DNA from: Trichomonas vaginalis G3
Lineage: Eukaryota; Parabasalia; Trichomonadida; Trichomonadidae
Reading direction: 5' to 3'
Assembly (NCBI RefSeq): GCF_026262505.1
Contig: NC_067207.1
Coordinates: 34,378,082 to 34,442,081, forward strand
DNA: 64,000 bases
Shown: piece by piece, positions 1-52,329 of the stretch
Layout: each line of letters opens with the position of its first letter
Position numbering within the stretch: the stretch's first letter is position 1
The notes under the pieces: model-generated
The model's database searches: none
Seen by the model: the letters and a program-made list of their open reading frames with translations, nothing else
Told to the model about the DNA's origin: nothing
Made by a program: the position numbers and the translations under genes

Positions 1-45
1 CCGAAATTCATCACACGTTTTAACCATGTAAAACGCTATAGAAAT

Positions 46-715
46 AACTGGGGTAGAAAACAGGTTAGAAACAACAGGTTAGATCTAACTCTCTACCCAA
101 AAGTTATTTTTGCTGATAGAGTTGCAGTCCAAAATTCTGAGTAAAATATTTTTTTAGGGCATGGTGTCAACCGTTGAGTTTTTCTACAAAATTCACAAAA
201 CTACGGTTTCACATCTTGTAAGATACGCTTATATAAATAACTGGGGTAAAGAACGAGGTTAAAAAGAGGTTAGCTTACCTTCCCTAAACATTATTTATTG
301 TCCTGAATTTACCGCCATTACGATGAAGAAAGTTTTGACAAAACCATTTACGAAGAGTTTGAGACAAAGACATGTAAGTAAGGAAGTCTTATGACAAAGA
401 CATTACGATGAATCATGAACAATTCAAGAGGGTAGAAAAAGGTTTAAGAAAACAGGTTAGATCTAAACCTTCTACCTAAACATATATTTTGGTTGTCTGA
501 TTTACGCTCATTACGAAGAAGTCTTGGACAAACATCATACGATGAAATCATGACAAAAGCATGTACGAAGAAGTCTTGACAAAACATGTACGAAAAGTCT
601 TTGACAAAGCATGTACGAAGAAGTCACTTGACAAAATTCAAGAGCGGTAGAAAACAAAGGTTTAACAAAACAGTTAATTAACCTTTCTTACCCTGTCTAA
701 AATAATATTTTTTTG
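46..715 (+). repeat. Four degraded hairpin repeat units with 25-bp minisatellite between
   Basis: Units lie at about 50-117, 241-300, 430-490 and 651-715. Each has G-rich direct hexamers (GGTAGA or GGTTAG), a central palindrome (GTTAGATCTAAC or GTTAATTAAC), the inverse hexamers, then an AT tail of the AAATATATTTTT type. Between them lie copies of the ACGAAGAAGTCTTGACAAAAC minisatellite. In the first unit the outer arms (GGGTAGA/TCTACCC) and inner arms (GTTAGA/TCTAAC) use different hexamers, showing which parts pair. Confidence 0.65.
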
Positions 716-28573: not shown

Positions 28574-28608
<35 letters not shown>

Positions 28609-28652
28609 AGTGGGGCTTCCAGGCACTTCGTGCCTTCTAGCCCTGAAGATGT
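28566..28652 (+). repeat. Left terminal inverted repeat of element A
   Basis: About 40 A residues are followed by AGTGGGGCTTCCAGGCACTT and on to CTAGCCCTGAAGATG. The AGGCACTTCGTGCCT stretch is a perfect hairpin. It is repeated inverted at 52258-52329 with one substitution (CTGAAGATG against CTGAGGATG) and a GGG/GTA difference next to the homopolymer. Confidence 0.9.
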
Positions 28653-28669
28653 TTAGTATAAATGAAGTC

Positions 28670-28749
28670 TTAGAGGACAAACATGACTATGAGTTTTGAT
28701 ATGACAAGATAGAATATGAGAGAGGTCCTATAAACCGGAGAAAGTGTTA
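28670..28749 (+). pseudogene. Duplicated 3' fragment of the methylase gene
   Basis: Eighty bases match 30636-30715 at nearly every position, covering the segment that encodes EDIHDYEFRYDKIEYERGP. The fragment lies immediately inside the left terminal repeat and is in the same orientation as the full gene. It looks like a leftover of a rearrangement that moved the terminus next to methylase sequence. Confidence 0.8.
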
Positions 28750-28796
28750 TATAAACATCTGTCATATTACTCAGAATATTATACAGAATTCAATAA

Positions 28797-29822
28797 AAAT
28801 ATATTTTAGGTGAAGAGGTGAGATTTCACCTGTTTTTTCACCTCATTTTTCACCTCTTGAATTTTCATGAATTTCATCGTAAAGACTTTGTCAAGATTTC
28901 ATCGTAAAGACTTTGTCAAGATTTCATCGTAAAGACTTTGTCAAAACTTCATCGTAAAGACTTTGTCAAAACTTCATCGTAAAGACTTTGTCAAGACTTC
29001 TTCGTAAATGTTTTGTCAAGACTTCTTCTTCGTAAATGTTTTGTCAAGACTTCTTCGTAAAATCAGACAAAAATATATTTTAGGTGAAGAGGTGAGATTT
29101 CACCTGTTTTTTCACCTAATTTTTCACCCTCTTGAATTTTACACCAAAAATATATTTTAGGTGAAGAGGTGAGATTTCACCTGTTTTTTCACCTAATTTT
29201 TCACCCTCTTGAATTTTCATGAAATTTACACCAAAAATATATTTTAGGTGAAGAGGTGAGATTTCACCTGTTTTTTCACCTAATTTTTCACCCTCTTGAA
29301 TTTTCATGAAATTTACACCAAAAATATACTACTAGGGTCATTTACGAAGAAATCTCAACAAAGTCTTTACGAAGAAATCTCAACAAAACATAGACAAGAA
29401 AGTTCATGAGAAATTAGATGAAGAAGTCTTAACAAAGTCTTTACGAAGAAATTCATGAAAATTCAAGAGGTGAGAAATGAGGTGAAAAAAGAGGTGAAAT
29501 CTCACCTCTTCACCTAAAATATATTTTTGGGTCATTTACGAAGAAATCTCAACAAAGTCTTTACGATGAAATCTTGACAAAACATAGACAAGAAAGTTCA
29601 TGAGAAATTAGATGAAGAAGTCTTAACAAAGTCTTTACGAAGAAATTCATGAAAATTCAAGAGGTGAGAAATGAGGTGAAAAAAGAGGTGAAATCTCACC
29701 TCTTCACCTAAAATATATTTTTGGTGTAAATTTCATGAAAATTCAAGAGGGTAGAAAAGAGGGTAGAAAACAGGTGAAATCTCACCTCATATGTCCTTAC
29801 TGAAAAAGTATGTGTTCCATCT
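28797..29822. repeat. Left subterminal array of hairpin units and 25-bp minisatellite
   Basis: Hairpin units lie at about 28807-28858, 29081-29140, 29151-29216 and 29238-29300 in one orientation and 29471-29527, 29661-29719 and 29747-29790 in the other. Cores are GAGGTGAGATTTCACCT or its complement. They are joined by TTCATCGTAAAGACTTTGTC 25-bp repeats (28871-29062). Three units are nearly identical, indicating recent conversion or duplication. The orientation flips near 29335. Confidence 0.85.
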
Positions 29823-29936
29823 GAAGTTCTTATATACGGGTCTTCCAGGAGCTTTTCACAAAATATATATGTTTTCATGTTTTGTCACTTTTCTGTCACT
29901 TTTCAGGTAAAAACATTTTTATTATATATATATAAA

Positions 29937-30755
29937 ATGAATTTTACAAAACCACCGTTACCCTTCTTTGGAAATAAGAGTAGATGTAAAGATATTCTAT
30001 TGAGAGAACTTAAGAAACTACCGAATGGTCTAACATTTGTAGATTTGTTCGGTGGAAGTTTCTATATATCCCATTTGTGCCATATAATATTTCCAGACTC
30101 AAAGATTATATGCAATGACTTCGACAACTATATGAACCGTCTCAAACATATACCAGACACAAACAAAATATTGAAAGAGTTAAAAGAAAAGATACCTATA
30201 GGTAAGATGGAACGTATACCATTAGATAAGAAAAATACTGTCAGAGAGGTTTTGAAAAAGGCAGAATATATTGACTGGGATAGTATATCTGCTAGACTAT
30301 TATATAGTGGTTCTATAAGAGTTCATGACATTGAAACACTTATGTCAAAAGTTTTATATCTTAACTATACAAAGGTTTTCAAAGAGAACATAGAAAAATA
30401 TACTGAGGGTATAGAGTTTGTGAGATGTCATTGGACAGAGTTGTATGAAAAATATAAAGACAAGGAAAATGTTTTCTTTATAGTAGACCCGCCGTTCTAT
30501 AACACATATGATTTTCAATACCAAGTAGACTGGACTTTGAGAGACTCTTTAGAAACTTTAGACGTTGTACATAACCATCCATGCTTTTACTTTACATCCG
30601 ATAAAAGTGGTTTGGAAAGTGTCATGAGATGGTTAGAGGACATACATGACTATGAGTTTAGATATGACAAGATAGAATATGAGAGAGGTCCTATAAACCG
30701 GAAAAAGTGTCATAACAAAGAAATTTTATTGGTAAGTAAATGTGGTTTGAAATAG
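29937..30755 (+). CDS. DNA adenine-N6 methyltransferase (Dam/D12 class)
   Basis: I start at the ATG at 29937, just after a TATATATATAAA tract. An earlier in-frame ATG at 29877 would add a hydrophobic stretch from the promoter region. The product is 272 residues. FFGNKSR (10-16) and FVDLFGGS (34-41) are the D12-class SAM-binding motifs, and DPPFYNTY (184-191) is the catalytic DPPY-type motif with Phe as fourth residue. It would methylate adenine in element or host DNA, perhaps for self-marking. A fragment of its 3' end is duplicated at 28670. Its end overlaps the next small gene by 16 bp. Confidence 0.88.
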   Translation: MNFTKPPLPFFGNKSRCKDILLRELKKLPNGLTFVDLFGGSFYISHLCHIIFPDSKIICNDFDNYMNRLKHIPDTNKILKELKEKIPIGKMERIPLDKKNTVREVLKKAEYIDWDSISARLLYSGSIRVHDIETLMSKVLYLNYTKVFKENIEKYTEGIEFVRCHWTELYEKYKDKENVFFIVDPPFYNTYDFQYQVDWTLRDSLETLDVVHNHPCFYFTSDKSGLESVMRWLEDIHDYEFRYDKIEYERGPINRKKCHNKEILLVSKCGLK

Positions 30756-30871
30756 GACTACTTGTTTTAGGTTTTTTCCATTGTGTCATTTACTTATTTG
30801 ACGTGGCAGAAAAGTACAGAGAATATGAAGATGAACCAATACCAGCAAATGTTCAGCATATGTACTCGTAA
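30740..30871 (+). CDS. 43-residue single-pass membrane protein
   Basis: The ATG at 30740 overlaps the methylase stop in another frame. The product begins MWFEIGLLVLGFFHCVIYLF, one hydrophobic helix, then a charged tail (AEKYREYEDEPIP) ending at a stop 23 bp before the next gene. The helix/acidic-tail layout is typical of small virion or host-membrane proteins. No family is recognised. The overlap and compact spacing support it as real. Confidence 0.5.
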   Translation: MWFEIGLLVLGFFHCVIYLFDVAEKYREYEDEPIPANVQHMYS

Positions 30872-30894
30872 GAGATATTTTTATCTAATATTAA

Positions 30895-39661: not shown

Positions 39662-40140
39662 AATAACAGGTGAAAAAAGAGGTGAAAAAAGAGGTGAAAT
39701 CTCACCTCTTCACCTAAAATATATTTTTATTGAATTCTGTATAAAATTCTGAGTAAAATGACATATGGAACACATACTTTTTCAGTAAGGACATATGGGG
39801 TAGAAATGAGGGTAGAAAACGGGGTAGATATACCCTTCTACCCTAAAATATATTTTTGTCTGTTTTACACTCATTGACGATTAAAGTCTTGACAAAACAT
39901 ATACGATGAAGTCTTGACAAAACATATACGAAGAAGTCTTGACAAAACATATACGAAGAAGTCTTGACAAAACATATACGAAGAAGTCTTGACAAAACAT
40001 TTACGATGAAATCATGAAAATTCATGAGGTGAAAAAAGAGGTGAAAAAACAGGTGAAATCTCACCTCTTCACCTAAAATATATTTTTGCTGAAAAAAATG
40101 ACCAAATTTCATGAATTTCCTTAAGACAGAAAAAATAACG
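39662..40140. repeat. Three hairpin units with 25-bp minisatellite
   Basis: Units lie at 39668-39727 (GGTGAAATCTCACC), 39801-39857 (GGGTAGATATACCC) and 40026-40085 (GGTGAAATCTCACC). Five ACGAAGAAGTCTTGACAAAA repeats fill 39877-40010. At 39765-39797 a 33-bp segment is the exact reverse complement of 29788-29820 in the left subterminal array. Confidence 0.85.
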
Positions 40141-40187
40141 CTAGTTTTTTATAAAATATTTTTTTTATTTTGTATGTAAAGACAGAT

Positions 40188-40577
40188 ATGTCAACATCAG
40201 AGAACACAACAACTGCTATCGTTCATGAAGCCATAAATGAAGAATATGAGTACATACAGTTTAACAAACAACTCCGTCTCATTCGTTCGGTCAAAGATGA
40301 CATGTACCAAATGCAAAGTATTTTGACAGCATGTTTTGCTCCAGATACTAAGAAACCACAAGACTGGTTTGAATTAAATAGCACTCATGAACTCCTCAGT
40401 GAGTTTGAACATGTAGAACTTAAAAAGATGTACCAAGACAGACAAAACTTACCATCACATCTAAAAGGTATATATGTTCATAAGTTCCTAGTTAGTTCAA
40501 TAGCAATGTGGGCTTCGCCTCGCTATGCTTGGTATATTTACAGACTTCTTGACGAAGTTGCTGAAAAATACATGTAA
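40188..40577 (+). CDS. Short KilA-N-like protein
   Basis: I use the ATG at 40188 after TATGTAAAGACAGAT. The product is 129 residues. It shares EAINEEYEYIQ-NKQLRLIR and SVKDDMYQMQSIL with the next gene. The C-terminal half carries the KilA-N-like LKGIYVHKFLVSSIAMWASPRYA and ends DEVAEKYM. The domain is divergent, lacking the INATK core. It is one of three related genes in tandem (37831, 40188, 40666), so local duplication is likely. Confidence 0.6.
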   Translation: MSTSENTTTAIVHEAINEEYEYIQFNKQLRLIRSVKDDMYQMQSILTACFAPDTKKPQDWFELNSTHELLSEFEHVELKKMYQDRQNLPSHLKGIYVHKFLVSSIAMWASPRYAWYIYRLLDEVAEKYM

Positions 40578-40665
40578 AGCGTTTATTTTTGGTCTTTTAT
40601 ACAAGATAGAAAATAACGCTAGTTTTATTTTTATTTATTTTTTTATTTTGTATGTAAAGACAGAT

Positions 40666-41472
40666 ATGTCAACAACAGAGAACACAACAACAGTTATAGT
40701 CCATGAAGCTATAAATGAAGAATACGAGTACATACAATATAACAAACAGTTACGTCTCATTCGTTCGGTCAAAGATGACATGTACCAAATGCAAAGTATT
40801 TTGAATGCTCTTCGTTCTACAAAGCAAGCACGTCATTGGTTTGAAAACCAGCAGGCAAAAGAACTTTTAGAAGAATTTCCTCATATGTTTGCGAGTGGTA
40901 GAAAACCGCGGAACGAGATTCCGTACGAAAATCGTAAAAATTTGCCAAATAGTTTGAGAGGTTGGTATGTACATAGACTTCTTGTAAATGCTGTTGCAAT
41001 GTGGGCTTCACCTCGCTATGCTTGTTATATTTTCATGATGTTAGATGAAATTCATAGACAAGAACGTGAAGAGCTAGAGAACAAGCTTGAAGCAAAAGAC
41101 AAAAACATACAGAAAAGAATACCACGTTCGGTACCAAAAGGAAAGGAAAAGAACTATAAGTATATGATTTATACTGAAGAGATGGAAAATGAAGAAGACA
41201 GAGATATGGTTATGTTGCATTTAGTCAGAAGAAACAACAAAAGCTTTTACGACCTTGCTAAGATTTACAAATCTGACAGAAATTGGTTCTATCGCGAAAA
41301 CTTACCGATTTCAATGACACCGAATGAAGATGTGAAACAAATAGTTCAAGATACGTTACCTCAAACACACTATGATATTAAAGGTTGTACAATACTTACC
41401 TTCAAAGAAGATTTGCCATTGTTAAAGGAAAAAATAACAGAGTATTTTGACAACTTCAAACAAGCAGAGTAG
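40666..41472 (+). CDS. KilA-N-like protein with additional C-terminal domain
   Basis: I use the ATG at 40666. In-frame residues before it derive from the end of the previous gene. The product is 268 residues: a KilA-N-like half (LRGWYVHRLLVNAVAMWASPRYA, about 95-118), a charged coiled-coil linker (DEIHRQEREELENKLEAK) and a C-terminal domain with NYKYMIYTEEMENEEDRD and LHLVRRNNKSFYDLAKIY, reminiscent of the DUF3627-type extension in insect DNA virus proteins. A broken copy lies at 1008-1944. Probably a DNA-binding regulator. Confidence 0.6.
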   Translation: MSTTENTTTVIVHEAINEEYEYIQYNKQLRLIRSVKDDMYQMQSILNALRSTKQARHWFENQQAKELLEEFPHMFASGRKPRNEIPYENRKNLPNSLRGWYVHRLLVNAVAMWASPRYACYIFMMLDEIHRQEREELENKLEAKDKNIQKRIPRSVPKGKEKNYKYMIYTEEMENEEDRDMVMLHLVRRNNKSFYDLAKIYKSDRNWFYRENLPISMTPNEDVKQIVQDTLPQTHYDIKGCTILTFKEDLPLLKEKITEYFDNFKQAE

Positions 41473-41475
41473 ATG

Positions 41476-41815
41476 AACTCTTTATTTTTCAAGCTTGACT
41501 TCAGATGGCTCAGGTAGCTCTATAAGGTAAATTGTCTTGTCAAATCCTTCTGGCATTCCGAGTCCTTCCATCCGACATTCCGAGTCCTTCCATCCGACAA
41601 GAAAAAAATTTCCCGACAACTGGAAAAAAATTTCCCGACAACTGGAAAAATTTTTCCTGTTGTTCGTCCGTAAACCATTCAAATTTTCGAAAATTGAGAA
41701 CTTTTTGGTCGAACTTCAGGAAAAAAATTTCCCGACAACTGGAAAAAAATTTCCCGACAACAGGAAAAGTTCTTCCTTCCGACAGGAAAAGTTCTTCCTT
41801 CCAACAGGACACAAA
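41476..41815. repeat. Palindromic GGAAAAAAATTTCC minisatellite
   Basis: Variants of AATTTCCCGACAACTGGAAA and TTCTTCCTTCCGACAGGAAA recur, plus two direct copies of ATTCCGAGTCCTTCCATCCG (41552-41598). Several frames stay open but only because the unit lacks stops. The minus-strand end (about 41482-41555, MPEGFDKTIYLIELPEPSEV) could be a gene tail, not supported further. An older copy is at 2000-2470. Confidence 0.7.
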
Positions 41816-41818
41816 CGA

Positions 41819-41920
41819 ATGTCCGACGTACCACCAACCGAGTCCATTCCAAAGCCAGAAGAACCGACAGCCCCAGCACCACAACAGACTAAGACTCAAC
41901 ACTTACATTTTTACGCTTGA
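41819..41920 (+). CDS. Possible 33-residue proline-rich peptide
   Basis: MSDVPPTESIPKPEEPTAPA opens this short frame, which overlaps the end of the ATPase gene. The corresponding stretch in the first copy (about 2390-2480) does not keep the frame. It is weakly supported. Confidence 0.2.
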   Translation: MSDVPPTESIPKPEEPTAPAPQQTKTQHLHFYA

Positions 41921-42777
41921 CTTTTTACAATTTGAACTTTGTTTGCGTAGATATGAATTCTGAAAGAAGTATGAGGGTCTTGTATGACTTTGTACTTCTC
42001 CCATAGTTCATGTCTGTCAAACTTACCTGCCATGGACTCTTTCATAAGTTCCAATCTTCGGACAATCCAGGAAAAGTACAATGTCAGTAAGTATTCTCTT
42101 TACATCCTTACTTAAACTCTTTGCTGTCTGTACACATATTACGACTGAGATGTTAAAGTGTCTGAGCTTCTTAAGAATTCGACACATGTCTTGTTCTCTG
42201 TTCTTTAACAAAGGATGAGAGGCGAAATCATCTAAGATAAGAAGACATCTATGAGGGTAAGTCTTCCAATCGTAAGATTGCAATTTCTTCGAAATGTATT
42301 CTATCTCTTTCTGTTTGTTTCTGAAGTGTTTCTTCTCTAATATTCTCTGCATTTCCTCATTTGGGTCTTTAAACTTCGAATTGACATACTCATTTATAGC
42401 ATTGTACTTCAAAACTCTTCTTTGGTACTTCTTTATCCAATCTAACAACTCAGTATCTTTATACATACTAACTTAGACTTTTTATATAATTCTTTGAACG
42501 AATTGACGGTTTGATCGAATTGACCAGAAGTACTACAAATAACAACTAACTCATAGAATGGGTTCTTCTCATCTAGTTCTTGTTGTTGTGCAGCCATTTT
42601 AAGATAAGTGAAAGTCTTACCCGACCCAGGTGGTGCGATTAGACCTGTTATACCATTCTGAGCAAATAGGAACTTGTCATGTATGGGTTTTATCTGAGCA
42701 TTTTCTAACTTCCTCTTGTTCTTGTTTAAAACATTCTCAAATTTCTTGTCAATGTCAGCAAACTTTTTTTCTAACAT
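41911..42777 (-). pseudogene. Genome-packaging ATPase (FtsK/HerA-type), two frame changes
   Basis: The ATG at 42777 begins MLEKKFADIDKKFEN. Walker A is GLIAPPGSGKT and Walker B is CLLILDDFA, with a downstream ICVQTAKSL stretch (sensor-like Gln). The frame shifts near 42455 and again near 42065, then continues LELMKESMAGKFDRHELWE to the stop at 41911, about 289 codons in total, normal for Maverick/NCLDV packaging ATPases. It pumps DNA into capsids. A broken copy is at 2480-3440. It is divergent from the 42814 gene. Confidence 0.8.
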
Positions 42778-42813
42778 ATTTTTAGAAAAATTAAAATTTT
42801 TATCTTTTTGAAA
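42778..42813. promoter_or_regulatory. Bidirectional promoter-like spacer, ATPase and 42814 gene
   Basis: These 36 bp of AT-rich DNA (ATTTTTAGAAAAATTAAAAT then TTTTATCTTTTTGAAA) lie between divergent start codons and are conserved in order in the first copy (about 3440-3510). Confidence 0.4.
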
Positions 42814-43239
42814 ATGTCTAGCGATTTCGCTATCTATATTCGAGACAAACTTTTCGACAGCAAAACATCTGTCGACCATAAAATCTTACATAGTGTAAAC
42901 AAGAAAGGTGAATTTGTTCTAAAGTTCTGTTTCTGGGAATATGACAAGAACCATAAAACATTACAAAGAGCAGTCTTAAAATTTGTCAATGACAGACTTG
43001 TTGACAGAGATGACGCCTCTTGGAGAGATGAAGTCCAACAAAAGTTCTTAGAATGCAAAGAAGACACATGCGCTGTTCTTGAAGATGAAATAGAAAACAG
43101 AATAGAAGAGCTATTAAAGGACAAAGAACTTTTACATAAATATGGTTCTGAGAAATTTGACATAACTCCACCAGAAAGAAGAAGAAGAGAGAAAGAAAGA
43201 AAAGAAAGAAAAGAAAGTAGAAGAGAAGAAAGAACCTGA
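42814..43239 (+). CDS. Unknown charged protein, 141 residues
   Basis: Start ATG at 42814. The product has a globular N-terminal half (SSDFAIYIRDKLFD, FCFWEYDKNHKTLQRAVLKF), an acidic helix (EDTCAVLEDEIENRIEELLKD) and a very basic Arg/Glu/Lys tail (PERRRREKERKERKESRRE). A broken copy follows the ATPase in the first segment too, so the pairing is ancestral. Function unknown. The tail could bind DNA or be a low-complexity linker. Confidence 0.55.
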   Translation: MSSDFAIYIRDKLFDSKTSVDHKILHSVNKKGEFVLKFCFWEYDKNHKTLQRAVLKFVNDRLVDRDDASWRDEVQQKFLECKEDTCAVLEDEIENRIEELLKDKELLHKYGSEKFDITPPERRRREKERKERKESRREERT

Positions 43240-43289
43240 ACCAGTTCCAGAGAAGGTGAGATATGACATGTAAAAATAAACTTTTATTT

Positions 43290-43709
43290 TTAGAACATTT
43301 CTGGGTCAATGTCAATGTTCTCTTCCTCTTTAGGAGCAAACACTGGCTTAGACTCTAAAATCTTTTTACCCAATTTACCTTGAACTTCAACTATCTTAGA
43401 CTCATAATATTCATAGTCGTCTGCTTTCTTTGGTTCATAAGGTATAACAAGTTTGTATGCTTTGCCTTCTTTAAGGTTTGAAAACCTTCTGTCAAAATTT
43501 TCCTTGACTGTTAACAAACCTTCTATGTCTAAGTCTTCAAATTTCGCACCATTTTTAGTCACAATAGCAAACTTAACTGGTTCGATGTTCCAAACTTTGT
43601 CAAATGTAGACTTTTCAAAATGGTAGAAGTAAACATTCAAATAAGCGAATGGAGCTAACTTATCTTTGACTTCTGTCATATACTTGTTGACTGAGATGAA
43701 TTTCATCAT
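43290..43709 (-). CDS. Unknown protein, 139 residues
   Basis: The product begins MMKFISVNKYMTEVKDKL and has a beta-rich centre (FAYLNVYFYHFEKSTFDKVW, PVKFAIVTKNG). It ends in an acidic tail (KEEENIDIDPEMF). Convergent with the 42814 gene (50 bp apart). A broken copy is at 4015-4460. The composition recalls small single-strand-binding or OB-like proteins, but no motif proves it. Confidence 0.5.
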   Translation of the reverse strand: MMKFISVNKYMTEVKDKLAPFAYLNVYFYHFEKSTFDKVWNIEPVKFAIVTKNGAKFEDLDIEGLLTVKENFDRRFSNLKEGKAYKLVIPYEPKKADDYEYYESKIVEVQGKLGKKILESKPVFAPKEEENIDIDPEMF

Positions 43710-43750
43710 CTTTTCTATCGGATAAAAAAATATTTTTTTTAAAAAACGTT

Positions 43751-44335
43751 TTAAAATGGTATGCCATATAGCTTCTTGAATTTGTTAAGAAGTATTTTAA
43801 CGTATTTTCCATCTGTATCTCTAGTGTTTACATAAGCATAGCCATCCTTAGTAAAACATACTTGTAATTTCCTATAGTTTACGCCGGTATAAAAGTAGAA
43901 AGAGTCTTGTTCTTCGCTATAGTAGTAAAACTCAAACGTATGCTTGCCATAGTCTGTAATTTCAATTGCTTCATCTTCTAGTTCGTCGACAAATTCGAAT
44001 ACAATATCTCTAAATTTGCTTTTGTTCTTATTGTTTTCAGAACGAGTAACCCAACGTAAATTTTCAAGTCTATTGTCATTTCTTATACGGTTTATATGGT
44101 CTACAAAAGGTAGATTGTTAGGGTTCGGTATAAAATGAGTTGCAATGACAACATGTTTTAAATAGTGTTTTCCACCCATCTTCATCCTAGCATATCCTTT
44201 ATTTTGCTCCCATTCGCTTAAAACTCTTTTTGTCTTTTTGTTTCTGACTTCAAATGACTCACAACAGTGAATTTCATATTTCTCATCTAACAAACAAGTT
44301 TTCCAACAGTCTTTTCCGACAAACTCAGCGTACAT
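43751..44335 (-). CDS. HNH endonuclease (NUMOD4-like plus HNH)
   Basis: I start at the ATG at 44335. The product is 194 residues with an N-terminal NUMOD4-like segment (W-x-x-CLLDEKYEIH, RVLSEWEQNKGYARMKM). The HNH core follows: VVIATHFIPNPNNLPFVDHI, then RNDNRLENLRWVTRSENNKN with the catalytic H of VDHI and the two Asn. A C-terminal domain with YAYVNTRDTDGKYVKI follows. Such enzymes behave as homing-type nucleases in phages and giant viruses. A deleted sister copy lies directly upstream (44391-44489). Confidence 0.85.
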   Translation of the reverse strand: MYAEFVGKDCWKTCLLDEKYEIHCCESFEVRNKKTKRVLSEWEQNKGYARMKMGGKHYLKHVVIATHFIPNPNNLPFVDHINRIRNDNRLENLRWVTRSENNKNKSKFRDIVFEFVDELEDEAIEITDYGKHTFEFYYYSEEQDSFYFYTGVNYRKLQVCFTKDGYAYVNTRDTDGKYVKILLNKFKKLYGIPF

Positions 44336-44390
44336 TTCAAATAAAATAAAAAAATGTTTTTTTGAAAAAAATGTTTTAAAATGGTATGCC

Positions 44391-44489
44391 ATATTTTACT
44401 ATTTCATGCAATGTTTTACTTCTCATCTAACAAACATGTTGTCTGACGGTCTTCTCCAACAAAACTCAGCGTACATTTCAAATAAAATA
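44391..44489 (-). pseudogene. Deletion remnant of a second HNH gene
   Basis: It begins with the same start region as the intact gene (TTTGAAATGTACGCTGAGTT on the minus strand) and after about 60 bp ends with its 3' end (TATGGCATACCATTTTAAAA). Flanking T-tracts are also duplicated. A tandem copy apparently lost its interior. Confidence 0.7.
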
Positions 44490-44501
44490 AAAATATTTTT
44501 T

Positions 44502-45308
44502 TTATTCTTGACTTTGTTGTTGCATTTGTTCCATTTGTTGCATTTGTTGTTCTTGAGCTATTTGTTGTTGAAGTTGTTCTTGTAGTACAATACTTTCACC
44601 AGTTGCATCTTCCAATTCGAAACTTTCTGCCGTCATTGACAAATACATAGGACATAAAAGTTTTACAGGAACAAAGTTTGCGTCAACTAAGGTTAAGTTT
44701 ATGTTTGCTAAAGTGTTTGAGTTCACTAAAGCTGAAAACTCTGCATTCGAATGAACAATAGGCAAACCAGCAGAGAAAGTGTTGTTTATACGCATGAGTA
44801 TCTTTTGGTCATAGTAGTTTCTGTCGACATTCGAATAGCACTTTGAACCTAAGTTTGAAACAATATATAAAATAGGTGTACTTAAAGTCAATGGAACAGA
44901 CAAACCTTGTATGACACCTTTTCCTGTTATAGGAAACTGTTGGTAGTAAAAACCAGATATAAGTTTTGTATTATAGCTCATATCGTTTATACTAAACTCA
45001 GTCGGACATCCAAACATAATGAAACCTGCTCTAGTTGCAGCACATGTTACATCCGTCCTTAAAGTATTAAATAAGTCAACAAAACCTGTTGGTGGTATAT
45101 CTGAGTAAGTATCTTCAAAGAAGTATTTTTTACCATTCACAACAACAAAGTCTTCTGGTGTCAAAAGAGCAAAACAGGCTTTAGTCGTCATCGTGTTTAA
45201 GGTCAGTTTACAATATCGTCCTTGAGGACTTTGTAAGTTTGTTGTTATAGAATTATATGACTCAGGGTTTTTAGTCGTAATAGTATAAACCACTATGTCT
45301 TCTGCCAT
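44502..45308 (-). CDS. Putative minor capsid (penton-like) protein
   Basis: The product is 268 residues, beta-strand-rich, with repeated small hydrophobic strands (DIVVYTITTKNPESYNSI, GFIMFGCPTEF, TPILYIVSNLGSK) and a Gln/Met-rich C-terminal tail (QQIAQEQQMQQMEQMQQQ). It lies in the capsid gene block, near the major capsid gene and on its strand. Polintons usually place a single jelly-roll penton here, so the role is inferred from size, strand pattern and position. Confidence 0.55.
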   Translation of the reverse strand: MAEDIVVYTITTKNPESYNSITTNLQSPQGRYCKLTLNTMTTKACFALLTPEDFVVVNGKKYFFEDTYSDIPPTGFVDLFNTLRTDVTCAATRAGFIMFGCPTEFSINDMSYNTKLISGFYYQQFPITGKGVIQGLSVPLTLSTPILYIVSNLGSKCYSNVDRNYYDQKILMRINNTFSAGLPIVHSNAEFSALVNSNTLANINLTLVDANFVPVKLLCPMYLSMTAESFELEDATGESIVLQEQLQQQIAQEQQMQQMEQMQQQSQE

Positions 45309-45312
45309 TTAC

Positions 45313-45588
45313 TTAGCAACTAAATTTTAATGAAATGTTGTGGTCGTCAAATATTTTTATGACGTCTGGGAAACTATATTTTAAGTTCAACGTTTCACCT
45401 CCTTTCATAACGTATATCTTGTCAATGACATTATATGAAACACCACAGCAAGCAATGTCGGGTTCTATTTCTTTGATGTTTATATCGTCTGCCTCTGTCA
45501 AAAGTTTCAATAGTTCTTTCAAAATTTCATGAGGTGCGATGACATATGAGTTCACTTTTACAGGGTTGTGTTCGACCAAGTTTAACAT
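45313..45588 (-). CDS. Unknown small protein, 91 residues
   Basis: The first ATG is at 45588 (MLNLVEHNPVKVNSYVIAPH). The product has an acidic centre (LLTEADDINIKEIEPDIACC) and a beta-rich end (YVMKGGETLNLKYSFPDVI). It lies within a tight minus-strand block, 5 bp from the next upstream stop. Function unknown. Confidence 0.5.
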   Translation of the reverse strand: MLNLVEHNPVKVNSYVIAPHEILKELLKLLTEADDINIKEIEPDIACCGVSYNVIDKIYVMKGGETLNLKYSFPDVIKIFDDHNISLKFSC

Positions 45589-45592
45589 TATA

Positions 45593-45891
45593 CTAAAGCT
45601 TGACAAATCTTCTCCTGAGTTTTAAGTTTCTTTCAGTTGTGTAGTCGTTTCGAATATCTGCAACAGAACTTAAGTCTCTGCTAACTTCAGGATATGTTGG
45701 TTGTTCTTTTACAGGAACTATTGTTATACCATCTTCGTCTTCGTATGGTTTCCCCACTTCAACATCTCTGTCTTTGACATTGACAACAACACTTTGACTG
45801 TTTGTTTGAGTTGGTGAATTTAACTTCACATCTGCCACCGCCATTAAACCTTTTGAAACACTTACGCTTCTATTTTTCGGAAATGACATTT
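45593..45891 (-). CDS. Unknown small protein, 99 residues
   Basis: I start at MSFPKNRSVSVSK (45891) because a promoter-like spacer lies directly upstream and a plus-strand gene starts 17 bp away. The product is Val/Asp-rich in the middle (SVVVNVKDRDVEVGKPYEDE) and ends basic (LKLRRRFVKL). No domain seen. Confidence 0.5.
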
Positions 45892-45907
45892 TACTTAGAA
45901 TAAAAAG
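45892..45907. promoter_or_regulatory. 16-bp bidirectional promoter-like spacer
   Basis: Core CTTAGAATAAAAAG lies between divergent ATGs, the same core as the 32368-32385 spacer (TCTAGAATAAAA). Confidence 0.55.
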
Positions 45908-46327
45908 ATGGACGTATTCGAGTATCTCTTCGAATTGAAGCAGAACAAAGTTTACACACACAAACAATACAAATACATTGACAGAATAGTTCTTTATACA
46001 AACAATGGAAAATGTTATAGAATAGCAGTCTTTGCTGAACCAAAATATTTTCATAAAGCAAAGAAAGTTGGTATAACTGAAATGGTGAAAGTTCTTGAAG
46101 CAGACAAAAATATAACAACAAAACTGACCGATATTTCTAAAGGAAAGTTTTTAATACAATATTATATCAAAACTGGCGTACTGTCAATATTTGACGGAGA
46201 GAAGTCAGTTCAAGAACAACTTACTGACCTGCTGCCAAAATCTGCTCGATGGAAGCTGTCGTTATACCAATCTGAGGAGCCCCAGCAGGTTTCATCGAAC
46301 GAATTTTCAAAAGAGCATCTTCCGTGA
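45908..46327 (+). CDS. Unknown protein, 139 residues
   Basis: The product is Lys/Tyr-rich with beta-like segments (YKYIDRIVLYTNNGKCYRIA, GKFLIQYYIKTGVLSIF). Its last 35 codons overlap the end of the major capsid gene in antisense, so the exact 3' end is constrained by both. No family is recognised. It is the only plus-strand gene in this block. Confidence 0.5.
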   Translation: MDVFEYLFELKQNKVYTHKQYKYIDRIVLYTNNGKCYRIAVFAEPKYFHKAKKVGITEMVKVLEADKNITTKLTDISKGKFLIQYYIKTGVLSIFDGEKSVQEQLTDLLPKSARWKLSLYQSEEPQQVSSNEFSKEHLP

Positions 46328-47827
46328 AAAGTGCTATTGGTTTTGTAAACTTCTTTGCTTTCAATTCATTTGGACCGTCTCTGTCACCAGTATATTGTAT
46401 TTGAACTGTACCAACAGTTGAAATACCACCCATAAAGTCTTCTGAGTCAGCAAATGGAATGCCAAGCCAAAAGTTTGAACGGTCTCCATTTGTATATTGA
46501 GTTTTTTGACCTCCTGTATGAGTCCATACTTTCACATATGGCATAATAGAACTTTGCATTTCAGGGTTAATGGTTGTTGTGAAGTTGTTGTTAAAGTTCA
46601 TAGCATCTAATGTCAAGTTGTATGACCTCATATCCTCAACTGTAGAATATTCTTCTCTTGGATAATATTTGCCATCTATGTTTATATGGTATTTAATACC
46701 AGGGTTGTAGAAGCAAGAATAGTCATTTATAGTTCGTCTGAACAGTACAAACATAGTATCTGCATGTTTCATTGCAGTTGTTAAGGCAATATCTGTTCTT
46801 GCACCTGGGTCAGCACTTTGGTTTCCAACTTCACCTGCAAAGTCTTTGACAGATATTTGGTGTATAGGGAACATAAGTGGAACTGCAATATATTTGGCAG
46901 CTAAAGCATTTGAAATATCTGGGTCCAACATATAGACTGCAAGTCTGCTTTCTATTCTCTTGCATTCAAACTTTTCGCATGTAAACTTAACTGGGTCCCA
47001 AGCAGTTCCAGCAGCATTGAAATAATAGTTTACTTCAGTGTTGAGGTTTGAGAAACCAAAGTCTAAGTCAACTTTGTCTTTGCAAAATTCGGCGAATGAC
47101 GTTTGATTTGCTCCCTTTACGTCTGTAAGAGTGAATGGGTCTTGTGTTGGTGCAATGACTAAGTTATTTTTGCTTGGAGTAAGTTCGATAGAAATTTTTC
47201 CTGCCCAGTTTGGCAAGTATCTTAAAAACCTGAAGATGAGGAAAGATGACAAAGGAACTCTAAGTTTCATTTTACTTTGGTTACTGCTGCTGCATTTTGT
47301 CCAGAAAGGTTAACATAAACTCCTGGAACGTTAGGGTCAAGTCTTCTTATTTTCTCAATAGTTGCATACTGGTCTGTTTGTTCTCTAGCTTGTGGTTGTA
47401 CTGAGTTTCTCAAAGCGAACCATTCATAGTTTGCCCATGTTACTGTTTGAACTAAGTCAGAGTTAGAATATATCTTATATCCCATGAAAACTTCTGGAGC
47501 ATATTGGTATCCGACATAGAAAATTCCATTGCAACCTTTCTTGTCAGACAACTTGGCAGAAGGTTTTATTTCAATGTCTTGTTCCACGTATAAGAAAGAG
47601 TTGTCAATAGAAATTATATGAAACCTGTCGCAAGCAATATCTACTGTTGTTGAAGAACCTTCTCCAAACTCACCTACGTTTCCATAAGAAACAGCAGTTG
47701 TATATTCGTAAGTTCCAGGAACTATTTCTGACCTTCTAATGGCATTGTCGCATTCGTTATACCATTCGGAAACATTTCCATTCATAGCATCCAAAACTGT
47801 TGGCGTTATATTCTGAGCGGCGTACAT
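46221..47827 (-). pseudogene. Major capsid protein, split into two overlapping frames
   Basis: The upstream part (47267-47827, 186 codons) carries N-terminal MYAAQNITPTVLDAMNG and strands such as NSFLYVEQDIEIKP. The downstream part (46221-47270, 349 codons) begins KLRVPLSSFLIFRFLRYLPN, the conserved centre of Polinton double jelly-roll capsid proteins, and ends QIGITTASIEQILAAG. The frames meet at AAAATGA, where the stop TGA overlaps an ATG. The total of about 535 residues equals the usual single protein, so the break is probably a one-base loss. Reinitiation at the overlapping ATG is an alternative. Confidence 0.7.
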
Positions 47828-47859
47828 TTCATATGAGTAAAAATATAGAATAGTTGGAT

Positions 47860-50800
47860 TTATATGTCATAATAGAACCCACGTGGACCAAGCTTTACTT
47901 TCTTCCTGACTGAGTTTTTAACTCTTCTTTTTCCTTCATTGCCCTCTGCTTGAAGTTGTTGCATCTTTGCATTATGTTCATCTAGTATGTTGCAAATTTC
48001 CCATGTCCTTTTTGCCTTTTGGCTCTGGTCGCCCATCTCAGGTAACCTATATCCTAGAAAGAGTTTGTCATAGTCTGTATTTGAGTCTTCGCGTATTGTT
48101 TGCATGACTCTTTCCTGAGTTTCCGGTTCAAGCTCTTCAAACAGTGCCTGTCCATATGGAATATGCTCGTTTCCAAATATATGTTTTTGTAGCCATTCTG
48201 GTTTTCTTTCCATGTTACCAACTATATCTTTTGTGAATGGGAAAGCTTTACCCAATCTTTCAGTCTTGCGTCGTTTATTTCTGTAGTTGGTTTTATTTTG
48301 TCAAGGAACATGTTTTTCAATACTAACATTTCATTTGGTACTGTCCATTTGAGTTTTCTTAAATATTCATCCCTTCTCAGTTCATTGTCTGCAAAGTAAG
48401 TTTTTATGACATTTTGTAAACTTTCGTTTGCAAGGTCATGTACAATAGGTTCTCTTCCTTCGCTGTCCTAACTTTCTTTCTAAACTCTTCACCAAATATA
48501 CCATCTCTATGGTTCTGTGTAGTTCTTTGAGATAAATGTTCTAGAACGTCAGGTGTTATATTTCCATCAGCCATGTTCATTTCATACTGGTTCAAAATAT
48601 CTGCATCTTTCATATCTTTCAATGGCATTAAAGCCGCGCTGAAAATACCAGCTATATCTGGTTCACCATTCACTTCCATTGCGTCTACAACTTCTTGGAA
48701 TTGGTTGTAAGTTTATGAACCACCTATCCGGATTAGCTTTATGACCCCATCTCATTGTAGTTCCATCGTCTGCAGAAACAAAAGTAGGTTTGTTTCCATC
48801 TTGGCTAGGTTCTGAATGAACTTTAAACAATGTTTCATTTCTATATGTTTTCTTGAAATTTAACCTTTTATCTTCACCGAGTTCATCCGAAGATTGAACG
48901 TTAAATGCTCGTAAGTAAAAAGGGTTGTTGTATTTGTGTACATTTTTTTTCAGTTCTTCCATTCTATGCTGAATATTTTCATCTGGTGTTGGAGTCTTTT
49001 GTATGTCGGCAAACATTTTTCGATATTCTTCTACTATGTCAGCCGAATTTTTTTTAGACTCTTGGAAATATTCCATATTCTCCGCATACTCTTGTTGAGG
49101 GTCAAGATTTTTCGGCTGTTCCAAATCTTCATCTAGTTCTGTGAAGTTAGTTTCCAAAGGAGGACTTGTTCGTTTCCTTCAGGCTCTTCTAGCTGTTGTT
49201 GCTGAACTATTTCTTCCATGTCTGGTTGTATCTGAACTTCTTCCTGTGGAGTTTCTTGTACCTCATCTGCTGGCATTTCATATATTCCGAGACCGTTTTC
49301 AACAATTTCCCTATCTACGTCATCCGCATTCATAAGCTTTTGTTCTTTCGTTCCGTCTCTATTTTTTACGCGTTTCATGACGAAAGTTGAATTGTCATTT
49401 AGCTCTGACATCAAATATCTCGGAGTAAATTCATCCATGTCATTTGGATGATATGCTATTAAATCATATCCCTTAGCGAGCTTGTATTTTCCAGGTTTGA
49501 GATTATATCCGTTTTGGTGCTGAGCCATAAAGCTAAATAGGTTCGGGTCAGTATTTCCATCCTTGAACTTTCCAATAGCTTCTTTATATCTGTCACTAAA
49601 GTCAATACTATCTGGGAAACCACACTCTTCTTTAAGCATTTTTAAGAATTCTTGGTTTCCTTGTTCTCTACTTCTTTTATGTCCTTGCTCTGTTTGTGGA
49701 GGTGGTTGTTGTGCAGGGTTTTGAACTGTTGGTTGCTGTGCTGGTTGTTGTGTTGGTTGTTGTGCTGGTTGTTGTTGTTGTTGTGTTGGTTTTGGTGCAT
49801 GCCTGTGTCTGTGTCCATGTGACGATGTAAATGTTTTAGGTAGTCCTGGTGCAGGTGCTTCTCTTGGAGGGTTTGGTGGTATATAAGTTCCACCAGCTGG
49901 CACATATGTTCCATCTGCAGCGTAATGTCCTACCTGACTTTTCGTTTTTAAGAAAGCATTTACTAGGTCTGTTTTGGTCTGTTGTAACTCTTTTTCTTGA
50001 CTTTTCACAACAGTTGCTCTAACGGCGTCATAGGCACTTTGAACTGCCTGTCTCGTTGCTGCATCTGTTATTTTCGTCATATTTTGTGCTACTTCTTTTA
50101 ACTCTTTGTCGAAACCTTCAGACTTCAGTTTCTTTCCAGATGAGAAGTCGTTCACTTGTTTCACCTTACTATGAAGAGCTTCGAAGGCGTTCTTAAAGTC
50201 AGCATTTGTTAAAGCTTCATTTGAACTGTCTTCATCCGCTTGTATTTTTGTCCTTATTGACCCTATAAGTTGGGCTGCTTTAGCGTTGGCTTGGGCATCT
50301 AACCAGTCATTGTTAGCTTTTATATATTCTGCGCTTTTCATTGCCTTTTGCATGGCTGCGTCGTTATTTTTACTTTCTTGTGCTAAGTTTTCATACTGTA
50401 CGGTTTGGTTTTGCAACTGTAAAAGTTTTTCTGCCTTTACATTTGCTTCAACTTCTTTTTTATACTCATCGCTATCCATATATGTCTTCAGGGCTTTTTG
50501 TTTTATCTCTTCATCTTTCAGTACTTTATATTGAGTAGTATGGTTTTTCAAATTTATAACATCTTGTTCCATTTTTGCTACTTCTGCTGCTTTTTCTGAC
50601 ACTTTTTTCGCATATTCCTCTGTACTTAGTTCTTTCAGTTGTTCTTCTTTCTTCTTTTTCTCTACGTTTAACTCATTGAGTTTCTTTGTGTGTCTGTCAT
50701 ATTCTAGTTTCTTTTCGTTTTCACCTATTTGCTTCTGTATGTCTATGTTTGACTTTTTGACATCTGTTATTTGATTTTTGAGTGAACTCAAATTCATTTG

Positions 50801-51055
50801 ACTTTGAGGGTTATAAGCTGTTCCGTCTGCAGCTCCACCATAGCCTGCCATTTTCGCTAAAAGTGCCGCTCTTAAACCTCCACTCTGTGCACCAATGACT
50901 CGGTTTAAGAGCATAGGGTTGCTTGACATTTGTTGCAACATAGTGGGGTCATTCATCATTTGTTGTTGCAACTGTTGTTGTGGTGTCAGTTTTACTATTG
51001 GATGTTTCAATGCTCTCTTCCTCTTACGTATATTCTTACGTAGCTTACGTGGCAT
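47860..51055 (-). pseudogene. Large coiled-coil structural protein, frameshifted
   Basis: The first 640 codons (49133-51055) begin very basic (MPRKLRKNIRKRKRALKHP), then Gln/Met repeats, then a long coiled coil (NEKKLEYDRHTKKLNELNVE, about 130-310) and a Pro/Gln linker (QQQQPAQQPTQQPAQQPT). Downstream pieces continue in other frames: about 48663-49157 (NPDRWFINLQPIP), 48404-48679 (MKDADILNQYEMNMADG), an unlabelled frame at 48240-48470 (FADNELRRDEYLRKLKW) and 47860-48255 (NMERKPEWLQKHIFGNE). Joined length would be about 1,060 residues with roughly four frame changes. Likely a virion or scaffold protein; family unknown. Confidence 0.6.
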
Positions 51056-52257
51056 TTTAAGTGAAGTTAAAAAGCGGTTTTTGACAGATGTTTATATGAC
51101 ACTTCTTCGTAAAGACTTTGTTAAGACTTCTTCATAAATGAGTGTAAATGACCCAAAAATATATTTTAGGTGAAGAGGTGAGATTTCACCTGTTTTTTCA
51201 CCTAATTTTTCACCTCTTGAATTTTCATGAATTTCTTCGTAAAGACTTTGTTAAGACTTCTTCATCTAATTTCTCATGAACTTTCTTGTCTATGTTTTGT
51301 CAAGATTTCTTCGTAAAGACTTTGTTGAGATTTCTTCGTAAATGAGTGTAAATGACCCAAAAATATATTTTAGGTGAAGAGGTGAGATTTCACCTGTTTT
51401 TTCACCTAATTTTTCACCTCTTGAATTTTCATGAATTTCTTCGTAAAGACTTTGTTAAGACTTCTTCATCTAATTTCTCATGAACTTTCTTGTCTATGTT
51501 TTGTCAAGATTTCATCGTAAAGACTTTGTTGAGATTTCTTCGTAAATGAGTGTAAATGACCCAAAAATATATTTTAGGTGAAGAGGTGAGATTTCACCTC
51601 TTTTTTCACCTCATTTCTCACCTCTTGAATTTTCATGAAAAGACTTTGTTAAGACTTCTTCATCTAATTTCTCATGAACTTTCTTGTCTATGTTTTGTCA
51701 AGATTTCATCGTAAAGACTTTGTTGAGATTTCTTCGTAAATGACCCTAGTAGTATATTTTTGGTGTAAATTTCATGAAAATTCAAGAGGGTGAGAAATGA
51801 GGTGAAAAAAGAGGTGAAATCTCACCTCTTCACCTAAACATTATTTTTGTCTGATTTTACGAAGAAGTCTTGACAAAACATTTACGAAGAAGTCTTGACA
51901 AAACATTTACGATGAAGAAGTCTTGACAAAACATTTACGATGAAATCATGAGTTTTCTACGATGTTAGAAAAGAGGTTAGAAAAGAGGTTAGATCTAACA
52001 TTCTAACATAAACATTATTTTTGTCTGATTTTACGAAGAAGTCTTGACAAAACATTTACGATGAAGAAGTCTTGACAAAACATTTACGAAGAAATCATGA
52101 CAAAACATTTACGTTCATGTTTGACAAAACATTTACGAAGAAGTCTTGACAAAACATTTACGAAGAAGTCTTGACAAAACATTTACGAAGAAGTCTTGAC
52201 AAAACATTTACGAAGAAGTCTTGACAAAACATTTACGATGAAGAAGTCTTGACAAAA
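51056..52257. repeat. Right subterminal array of hairpin units and 25-bp minisatellite
   Basis: Hairpin units lie at 51161-51222, 51365-51425, 51565-51630 and, in the opposite orientation, 51787-51848 and 51968-52022 (the last with core GTTAGATCTAAC). A roughly 205-bp segment is repeated three times (51100-51740). The end (51857-52257) is mostly ACGAAGAAGTCTTGACAAAAC repeats. It mirrors the left array. Confidence 0.85.
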
Positions 52258-52301
52258 CATCCTCAGGGCTAGAAGGCACGAAGTGCCTGGAAGCCCCACT
52301 A

Positions 52302-52329
<28 letters not shown>
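52258..52329 (-). repeat. Right terminal inverted repeat of element A
   Basis: The mirror image of 28566-28652: CATCCTCAGGGCTAG, the AGGCACGAAGTGCCT hairpin, GGAAGCCCCACTAC, then 27 T residues. Host DNA begins after the T run with AAAACTGTG. Confidence 0.9.

What the first reader, a model, noticed from the sequence alone, without database searches (positions are those of the whole stretch)
28797..52257. Hairpin repeats whose palindromic cores vary between units but match within each unit
About 20 units share one layout: two or three direct hexamers, a central palindrome, one or two inverted hexamers, then AAATATATTTTT. In most units the hexamer is GGTGAA (core GGTGAAATCTCACC). At 39801-39857 it is GGTAGA (core GGGTAGATATACCC). 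At 38529-38578 and 51968-52022 it is GTTAGA (core GTTAGATCTAAC). In the first copy (50-117) the outer arms use GGGTAGA/TCTACCC and the inner arms GTTAGA/TCTAAC. Arms change together, which argues for selection on pairing or on dimeric protein binding. They could be origin, packaging or transcription sites with swappable specificity, perhaps read by the KilA-N proteins nearby.
Basis: partly seen in the sequence, partly recalled or inferred. Interest (0 to 1): 0.75.

Follow-up and report, generated by a model that had tools for sequence, protein, structure and literature searches.

The report
DNA repeats matched to DUF3839's tail
Thousands of virus-like mobile elements in the genome of the parasite Trichomonas vaginalis carry repeated DNA sites in four sequence versions, and the DUF3839 protein beside them usually ends in one of four matching short tails, as if protein and site had changed together like a lock and key.

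Summary
The repeats are real. Each unit holds five 7-base half-sites at fixed spacing and an AT-rich end. Half-sites fall into classes (A GGTGAAA, B GGTGAGA, C TGTTAGA, D GGKTAGA); all five agree in 229 of 307 sampled units, A and B pooled (shuffles 4.0). Exact cores number 13,914 genome-wide, backward controls 0. The host is a Maverick/Polinton of Trichomonas vaginalis. Units flank its DUF3839 gene and occur in some terminal repeats. New finding: the last ~10 residues of DUF3839 come in four discrete types that match the unit class, in 68 of 75 loci for the left unit and 73 of 77 for the right. The gene body between left unit and tail is only weakly associated, and DNA beside the left unit is less tied to it than the tail about 1 kb away, which simple linkage does not predict. 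Tails A and B differ by one residue (H/R); their sites by one base (A/G). Best reading: DUF3839, not KilA-N, reads the units. Neither DNA binding nor the biological role (repressor/immunity group, replication, packaging) is shown; both structure models were uninformative.

The parts
28616..52293 (.). Maverick/Polinton element, from end motif to end motif; an A run (28575-28605) and a T run (52303-52329) lie just outside the motifs
   Evidence: end motif + at 28616 and - at 52272; inverted terminal similarity 28873-29724 vs 52217-51357 (84%) and 28580-28657 vs 52329-52252 (95%); rve integrase 34091-34663 and Pox_A32-like ATPase 42023-42466
28795..29292 (-). four class A units in the left terminal repeat (28795-28854, 29069-29128, 29146-29205, 29233-29292)
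29469..29786 (+). two class A units (29469-29528, 29663-29722) and a partial mixed unit (about 29749-29786) in the left terminal repeat
37523..37582 (-). class A unit between DUF7777 and T5orf172 genes
   Evidence: genes
38516..38575 (-). class C unit (TGTTAGA x5), non-cognate to this element's A tail
38613..38672 (-). innermost left class A unit, upstream of the DUF3839 start codon
38756..39661 (+). DUF3839 gene (PF12943, 524 bits), proposed reader of the units
39623..39658 (+). class A tail SNIHHTIHVKRL, proposed specificity segment
39669..39728 (+). innermost right class A unit, just after the DUF3839 stop codon
39798..39857 (+). class D unit (GGGTAGA), non-cognate to this element's A tail
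40028..40087 (+). class A unit upstream of the first KilA-N ORF
   Evidence: KilA-N
51155..51622 (-). three class A units in the right terminal repeat (51155-51214, 51359-51418, 51563-51622)
51789..52022 (+). class A unit (51789-51848) and mixed C/D unit (51963-52022) in the right terminal repeat
50..117 (+). class D unit of a neighbouring decayed element; the DNA just before it resembles a decayed DUF3839 3' end (read by eye)

Best explanation
The units are binding platforms for the protein encoded between them, DUF3839. Each 7-base half-site would be bound by one DUF3839 C-terminal segment, the 14-bp dyad by a pair, and the fixed 12- and 8-bp spacings would arrange about five copies. The last ~10 residues decide which half-site class is read (A NIHHTI-GGTGAAA, B NIHRTI-GGTGAGA, C NHRNIY-TGTTAGA, D RIHNVY-GGKTAGA), so sites and tail must stay matched. 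Shown here: the site layout, the classes, the four tails and their association beyond linkage. Inferred: that the protein binds, that the tail contacts DNA, and that the element uses the platform to regulate itself (units sit upstream and downstream of DUF3839) and, in elements with units in their ends, to act on the ends. I put about 0.4 on a regulator or repressor, 0.3 on replication or packaging, the rest on other roles.
For: Tail matches the innermost left unit class in 68 of 75 loci and the right in 73 of 77. After keeping one locus per group of same-tail genes within 3% body divergence, 47 of 53 match; the best of 100,000 permutations is 29. Uncertainty coefficient given the left unit: 0.09-0.15 per 90-bp bin over most of the gene, 0.54 at the far 3' end; label-shuffle mean 0.057. 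DNA next to the left unit scores 0.34-0.38, the tail 0.61 in the same 62 loci. 25 of 71 loci have a nearest body relative with another tail: in 22 the left unit follows the locus's own tail, in 0 the neighbour's, in 3 neither, e.g. L014 (C,C,C) and L013 (A,A,A) with bodies 0.7% apart. Tail class changes at least 22 times on the body tree; 7 independent pairs on supported branches, 6.5 same way, 0 opposite, median p 0.016 for AB vs CD. Tails are four discrete types with a few single variants in 120 listed proteins. H/R at one residue goes with A/G at half-site position 6: tail A 18 of 18 A, tail B 25 G and 10 A. Orientation left -, right + in 76 of 79 loci; in 2 only the right unit was found, in 1 neither. 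Class agreement between cores reaches 3-15 kb (191 of 276, shuffle 0.27) and is at background beyond 27 kb.
Against: No binding data and no fold: the full-length model has mean pLDDT 44, and a 66-aa single-sequence model is mostly one long helix, not a winged helix. No DNA-binding family is matched; the only structured hits are weak ones to LicT (E 0.011 and 0.0077, below cut-off). Seven of 75 left units and four of 77 right units do not match. Whole-body similarity alone also predicts left class at 0.61 (tail 0.79, chance 0.26). Other pairings of the independent-pairs test are weaker (C vs rest p 0.031; B and D 0.0625; A only 2 pairs). E16 has tail B but class A units in its ends. Two supposedly non-cognate classes occur in the window element itself.
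Confidence: 0.7

Rival explanations
1. Neutral block inheritance: units and tail descend together as old flank lineages, while gene conversion within the conserved gene body erased the association in the middle. No protein-DNA recognition is needed.
For: The tail lies within about 50 bp of the right unit; body similarity predicts left class at 0.61; DNA beside the left unit is also somewhat class-associated.
Against: DNA touching the left unit should then be at least as associated with it as the tail 1 kb away; it is less (0.34-0.38 vs 0.61, nearest-neighbour 0.53 and 0.64 vs 0.77). Only the last ~10 codons are diagnostic. With at least 22 tail changes on the body tree, one-sided exchanges should be commoner than 7 mismatches in 71-75 loci.
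Confidence: 0.15
2. The units act as RNA hairpins (3'-end formation, terminator or small RNA precursors), and the arms covary to keep pairing.
For: Class A and D units fold better than all shuffles as RNA (z -5.0 and -3.3); one unit lies right after the DUF3839 stop codon.
Against: The mixed C/D unit at 51964-52023 folds weakly (-8.9 kcal/mol, z -1.45). The outermost-left half-site is unpaired in the A and D folds but shares the core's class in 271 of 307 units. RNA pairing does not predict a match to the DUF3839 tail. Units occur in both orientations and in terminal repeats away from gene ends.
Confidence: 0.06
3. KilA-N proteins read the units.
For: KilA-N is a DNA-binding domain family (recalled) and two KilA-N ORFs lie next to units.
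Against: No class-linked KilA-N residue seen in 8 aligned rows (by eye); units centre on DUF3839 in all sampled DUF3839 loci but one.
Confidence: 0.04
4. Unit-DUF3839-unit is a mobile cassette inside Mavericks and the units are its ends.
For: Inverted units bracket the gene in 76 of 79 loci; one element (848209) shows no DUF3839 in the 5 kb fetched and a different repeat pair there.
Against: In the multi-gene loci L039-L043 and the window, DUF3839 keeps the same place and orientation next to DUF7777; several units often stand on each side, and further units lie in the terminal repeats.
Confidence: 0.05

Closest known systems
Cluster A mycobacteriophage immunity repressor and stoperators (PMC6550527: abstract and one section read; PMC9283540: search listing only)
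   Same: One protein at a syntenic place, many repeated sites across the element, site motifs and protein diverging together into specificity groups.
   Different: Eukaryotic Maverick, not a tailed phage; five-half-site platforms with a dyad instead of single asymmetric sites; four discrete classes within one genome; specificity in a ~10-residue C-terminus; repression and immunity untested.
Plasmid iterons and Rep initiators (recalled)
   Same: Tandem direct repeats at helical-turn-like spacing, inverted copies near the gene of the cognate protein.
   Different: No origin shown; units absent from the ends of 4 of 10 elements examined.
Transposase and terminal inverted repeat co-evolution (recalled)
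   Same: A protein matched to sites at element ends.
   Different: The element has an rve integrase for that job, and the units lie mostly around DUF3839.
Maverick/Polinton elements of T. vaginalis (PMC7845603: passages and one section read; PMC10120064: passages read)
   Same: The host element: integrase, KilA-N, ATPase, terminal inverted repeats.
   Different: None of the passages I read describes the units, DUF3839 or specificity classes.

Membership tests
Maverick/Polinton | retrovirus-like integrase (rve) | tested here: met
   PF00665, E 3.4e-8, 34.1 bits against cut-off 32.6, at 34091-34663
Maverick/Polinton | A32-like packaging ATPase | tested here: met
   PF04665, 23.4 bits against cut-off 22.8, at 42023-42466, the gene split over two ORFs
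Maverick/Polinton | terminal inverted repeats | tested here: met
[quoted passage not shown]
   no PolB match among the 20 window ORFs scanned against Pfam; not searched further
Repressor/stoperator-like immunity system | many copies of one site per element with a cognate protein | tested here: met
   (association, not binding)
Repressor/stoperator-like immunity system | protein binds the site specifically | not testable with these tools
   needs a binding assay
Repressor/stoperator-like immunity system | represses the element and excludes like elements | not testable with these tools
   no experiment; published RNA-seq finds only 25 of 38,656 Mariner and Maverick ORFs above threshold (PMC7845603, section 8 read), which neither supports nor refutes it
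Winged-helix DNA-binding protein | recognisable fold or family match | tested here: not met
   no family match; helix-helix-hairpin order at the C-terminus of a poor model, contradicted by a single-sequence model
Iteron/Rep replicon | sites located at a replication origin | not tested
   no origin data

The most novel reading that the evidence does not exclude
Mavericks of T. vaginalis are divided into at least four compatibility or immunity groups. Each carries a DUF3839 regulator whose short C-terminus reads only its own group's sites, so thousands of copies in one nucleus regulate or exclude like copies and ignore others, and new groups arise by matched single-residue, single-base steps (H to R with A to G).
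Probability: 0.28. Interest if true: 0.9.

Novelty: new variant of a known kind. Interest (0 to 1): 0.75.

Why it matters
If DUF3839 reads these sites, one genome offers thousands of natural replicates of protein and site changing together, with matched one-residue and one-base differences: a natural data set for a DNA recognition code. It would also give a first function to a family of unknown function with more than 3,000 candidate copies in one genome and point to phage-like specificity groups among the integrated viruses or giant transposons that make up about a third of this genome (PMC10120064, passage read). I found no description of it in print in searches for Trichomonas vaginalis with Mavericks and inverted repeat, with KilA-N, with palindrom and Maverick, with Polinton or winged helix, for DUF3839, and for Polinton with superinfection and repressor; that library lacks most subscription papers, and I read only passages of the papers listed.

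Tried and rejected
KilA-N or T5orf172 as reader: no class-linked residues seen in small alignments. RNA hairpin only: folds differ by class and the unpaired outer half-site covaries too. Winged-helix fold: recalled resemblance to the C-terminal domain of D5-like primases, not borne out by Pfam, PHROGs, NCBIfam or PDB sequence searches, and the two models disagree; I ran no fold search because the models are too poor. Relatives outside T. vaginalis: none in viral contigs; the 120 proteins listed of 330 found are all named T. vaginalis G3. A first arm count used a tail pattern that missed the commonest AT tail; one search replaces it. Searches failed on a wrong reading frame and were repeated as 37-39.

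Rows dropped: of 79 DUF3839 loci, L021, L068 and L097 have no left unit found, L022 has no tail read by my pattern, L045 and L048 have broken genes and were left out; 73 loci gave 71 distinct ones. L057 (about 36% identical, broken) is not among the 79. Sampling is biased to intact, high-scoring genes: loci come from the best 150 and best 127 hits, several picked by class or because they lie inside paired end motifs.

Full report
What and where. The window is G000:C5:34378082-34442081 of a 180.9-Mb, 86-contig genome. It is Trichomonas vaginalis G3 or very near: the DUF3839 hits are named T. vaginalis G3 and lie on contigs of the same lengths as five of this genome's large contigs. The element at 28616-52293 is a Maverick/Polinton with inverted terminal similarity, an rve integrase and an A32-like ATPase in two ORFs, two KilA-N ORFs, T5orf172, HNH and DUF3839 (PF12943) genes.

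The units. A detector that asks only for geometry and partial identity finds 17 units in the element. Layout: half-sites 1, 2 and 3 direct and 12 bp apart; the third is the left arm of a 14-bp dyad; the fifth is inverted, 8 bp beyond the fourth; then mostly TAAAATATATTTTT or TAAACATTATTTTT. In 307 distinct units from the sampled loci, filtered on G at position 2, A at position 5 and an AT tail but not on the variable positions, all five half-sites fall in one class in 229 (A and B pooled) against 4.0 in arm shuffles; by distinct half-site quintets 36 of 85 against 1.0. Exact cores in the genome: A 2,649, B 4,103, C 2,989, D 3,504 plus 669 of a second D form; the patterns read backwards give 0 each. 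Mixed units exist: the second half-site is of another class in 18 otherwise C units, for example.

Where units lie. In the window they lie in both terminal repeats and around the T5orf172-DUF3839-KilA-N block, with none detected from 29.8 to 37.5 kb and only one chance hit from 40.1 to 51.1 kb. In 79 DUF3839 loci the innermost units are oriented - on the left and + on the right in 76; in two only the right one was found, in one neither. Of ten elements whose two ends I read (1.3 kb each), six have units in the ends and four do not. Ends and DUF3839 tail agree in class for the window (10 of 11 end units A-type), 34124 (4 of 5 D), 18637072 (3 of 4 D) and 15391929 (3 of 3 D); 19443591 has tail B but A-type end units (6 of 8, the other two D); 2296912 has a broken DUF3839 and D (4 of 6) and B ends. 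On the first 2.95 Mb of contig 1, where all five core lists are complete, cores 3-15 kb apart share class in 191 of 276 pairs (shuffle 0.27), 15-27 kb 161 of 388, and 27-60 kb 229 of 945, that is background. The class is thus largely a property of the element.

The tail. DUF3839 is nearly invariant (35 aligned proteins, mean column identity 90%), but its last ~10 residues before HVKRL come in four types. Among 79 loci: MNHRNIY 26, SRIHNVY 22, SNIHRTI 18, SNIHHTI 12, one not read; the 120 listed database proteins show the same four with a few single variants. Tail against innermost unit: left A 12 of 12, B 16 of 17, C 21 of 25, D 19 of 21; right A 12 of 12, B 14 of 17, C 25 of 26, D 22 of 22. 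The left mismatches are L031, L060, L063, L067, L070, L093 and L098.

Is it linkage? The tail lies within about 50 bp of the right unit, so the right side alone proves little. The left unit lies about 1 kb from the tail. In 71 distinct loci the share of site entropy explained by left class is 0.20 in the first 90 bp, 0.09-0.15 across the gene, and 0.54 (up to 0.79) at the tail, with a shuffle mean of 0.057. Beside the left unit itself it is 0.34-0.38, against 0.61 for the tail in the same 62 loci. When the nearest relative by gene body has another tail (25 loci), the left unit follows the locus's own tail in 22, the neighbour's in none. On a body tree the tail class changes at least 22 times; phylogenetically independent pairs on supported branches go the same way in 6.5 of 7, never opposite, median p 0.016 (other groupings are weaker, see evidence against). 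With near relatives of the same tail thinned out, 47 of 53 match, permutation maximum 29 in 100,000. Body similarity alone predicts left class at 0.61 against 0.79 for the tail and 0.26 by chance, so relatedness is part of the signal.

A possible code. Tails A and B differ by H or R at one position; their half-sites differ by A or G at position 6. In thinned loci, tail A has 18 of 18 A at that position in the three direct half-sites of the left unit; tail B has 25 G and 10 A (Fisher p 0.0004 for left class). Arginine reading guanine is a textbook contact (recalled). C and D share T at position 4 and the [IV]Y pair in the tail. This is inference from covariation; nothing here shows contact.

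Structure. The 35-sequence model is poor (pLDDT 44); its C-terminal order helix-helix-strand-strand would put the tail in a hairpin. A single-sequence model of 66 residues gives mainly one helix. Neither is usable. No DNA-binding family is matched.

Controls and alternatives. KilA-N and T5orf172 rows do not sort by class by eye, but the sample is small. As RNA, units of class A and D fold well (z -5.0, -3.3), the mixed C/D unit does not (z -1.45); the outermost half-site, unpaired in the A and D folds, still shares the core's class in 271 of 307 units. One element without DUF3839 in the 5 kb fetched has at the same place an inverted pair of a quite different repeat that keeps the AT tail, which may be a further site family with another reader.

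Known systems. The nearest parallel is the Cluster A mycobacteriophage repressor with stoperators, where repressor and site motif diverge together and set immunity groups (PMC6550527, abstract and one section read). It works like that at most by analogy: binding, repression and exclusion are untested here. I rate the recognition claim at 0.7 and the immunity-group reading at 0.28.

Noticed in passing
L051 (C1:857800-862800), about 1250-1830: Element without DUF3839 in the fetched stretch carries an inverted pair of a different repeat (GGGACCGA type, ending GGTTCCACCTAAAATATATTTTT) where others have DUF3839 and its units.
   Followed up: partly
28575-28616 and 52272-52329: A run and T run of about 30 bases flank the end motif CTTCCAGGCACTTCGTGCCTTC, itself an imperfect palindrome, with 1,102 exact copies genome-wide.
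   Followed up: partly
window 32386-33708: Maverick ORF with phage tail repeats and a Gp10 baseplate C-terminal domain (E 7.6e-26): a tail-fibre-like protein in a eukaryotic element.
   Followed up: no
L040 6293-6576, L042 5417-5763: Tandem arrays built on CTACTGACAGTAG beside a KilA-N-like ORF, between DUF3839 and DUF7777; similar arrays in L012, L031 and L034.
   Followed up: no
window 38432-38450, 40570-40590, 39645-39661: The 3' ends of T5orf172, the first KilA-N ORF and DUF3839 share CATGTAAARCG, overlapping or next to the stop codon; perhaps a 3'-end signal.
   Followed up: no
window 38756-39658: DUF3839 has an invariant CSKC and a conserved H-C-N-H, a possible metal site; some database entries of it are named organellar and viral DNA polymerase type B, for which I saw no support.
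   Followed up: no
window 1-700: Remnant of another element with four decayed D-like units; the first follows a decayed DUF3839-like 3' end.
   Followed up: partly
window 20156-28156 and 53847-57503: Flanking host genes: a 2,666-aa ORF (not examined) and a 1,218-aa ankyrin-repeat protein.
   Followed up: no
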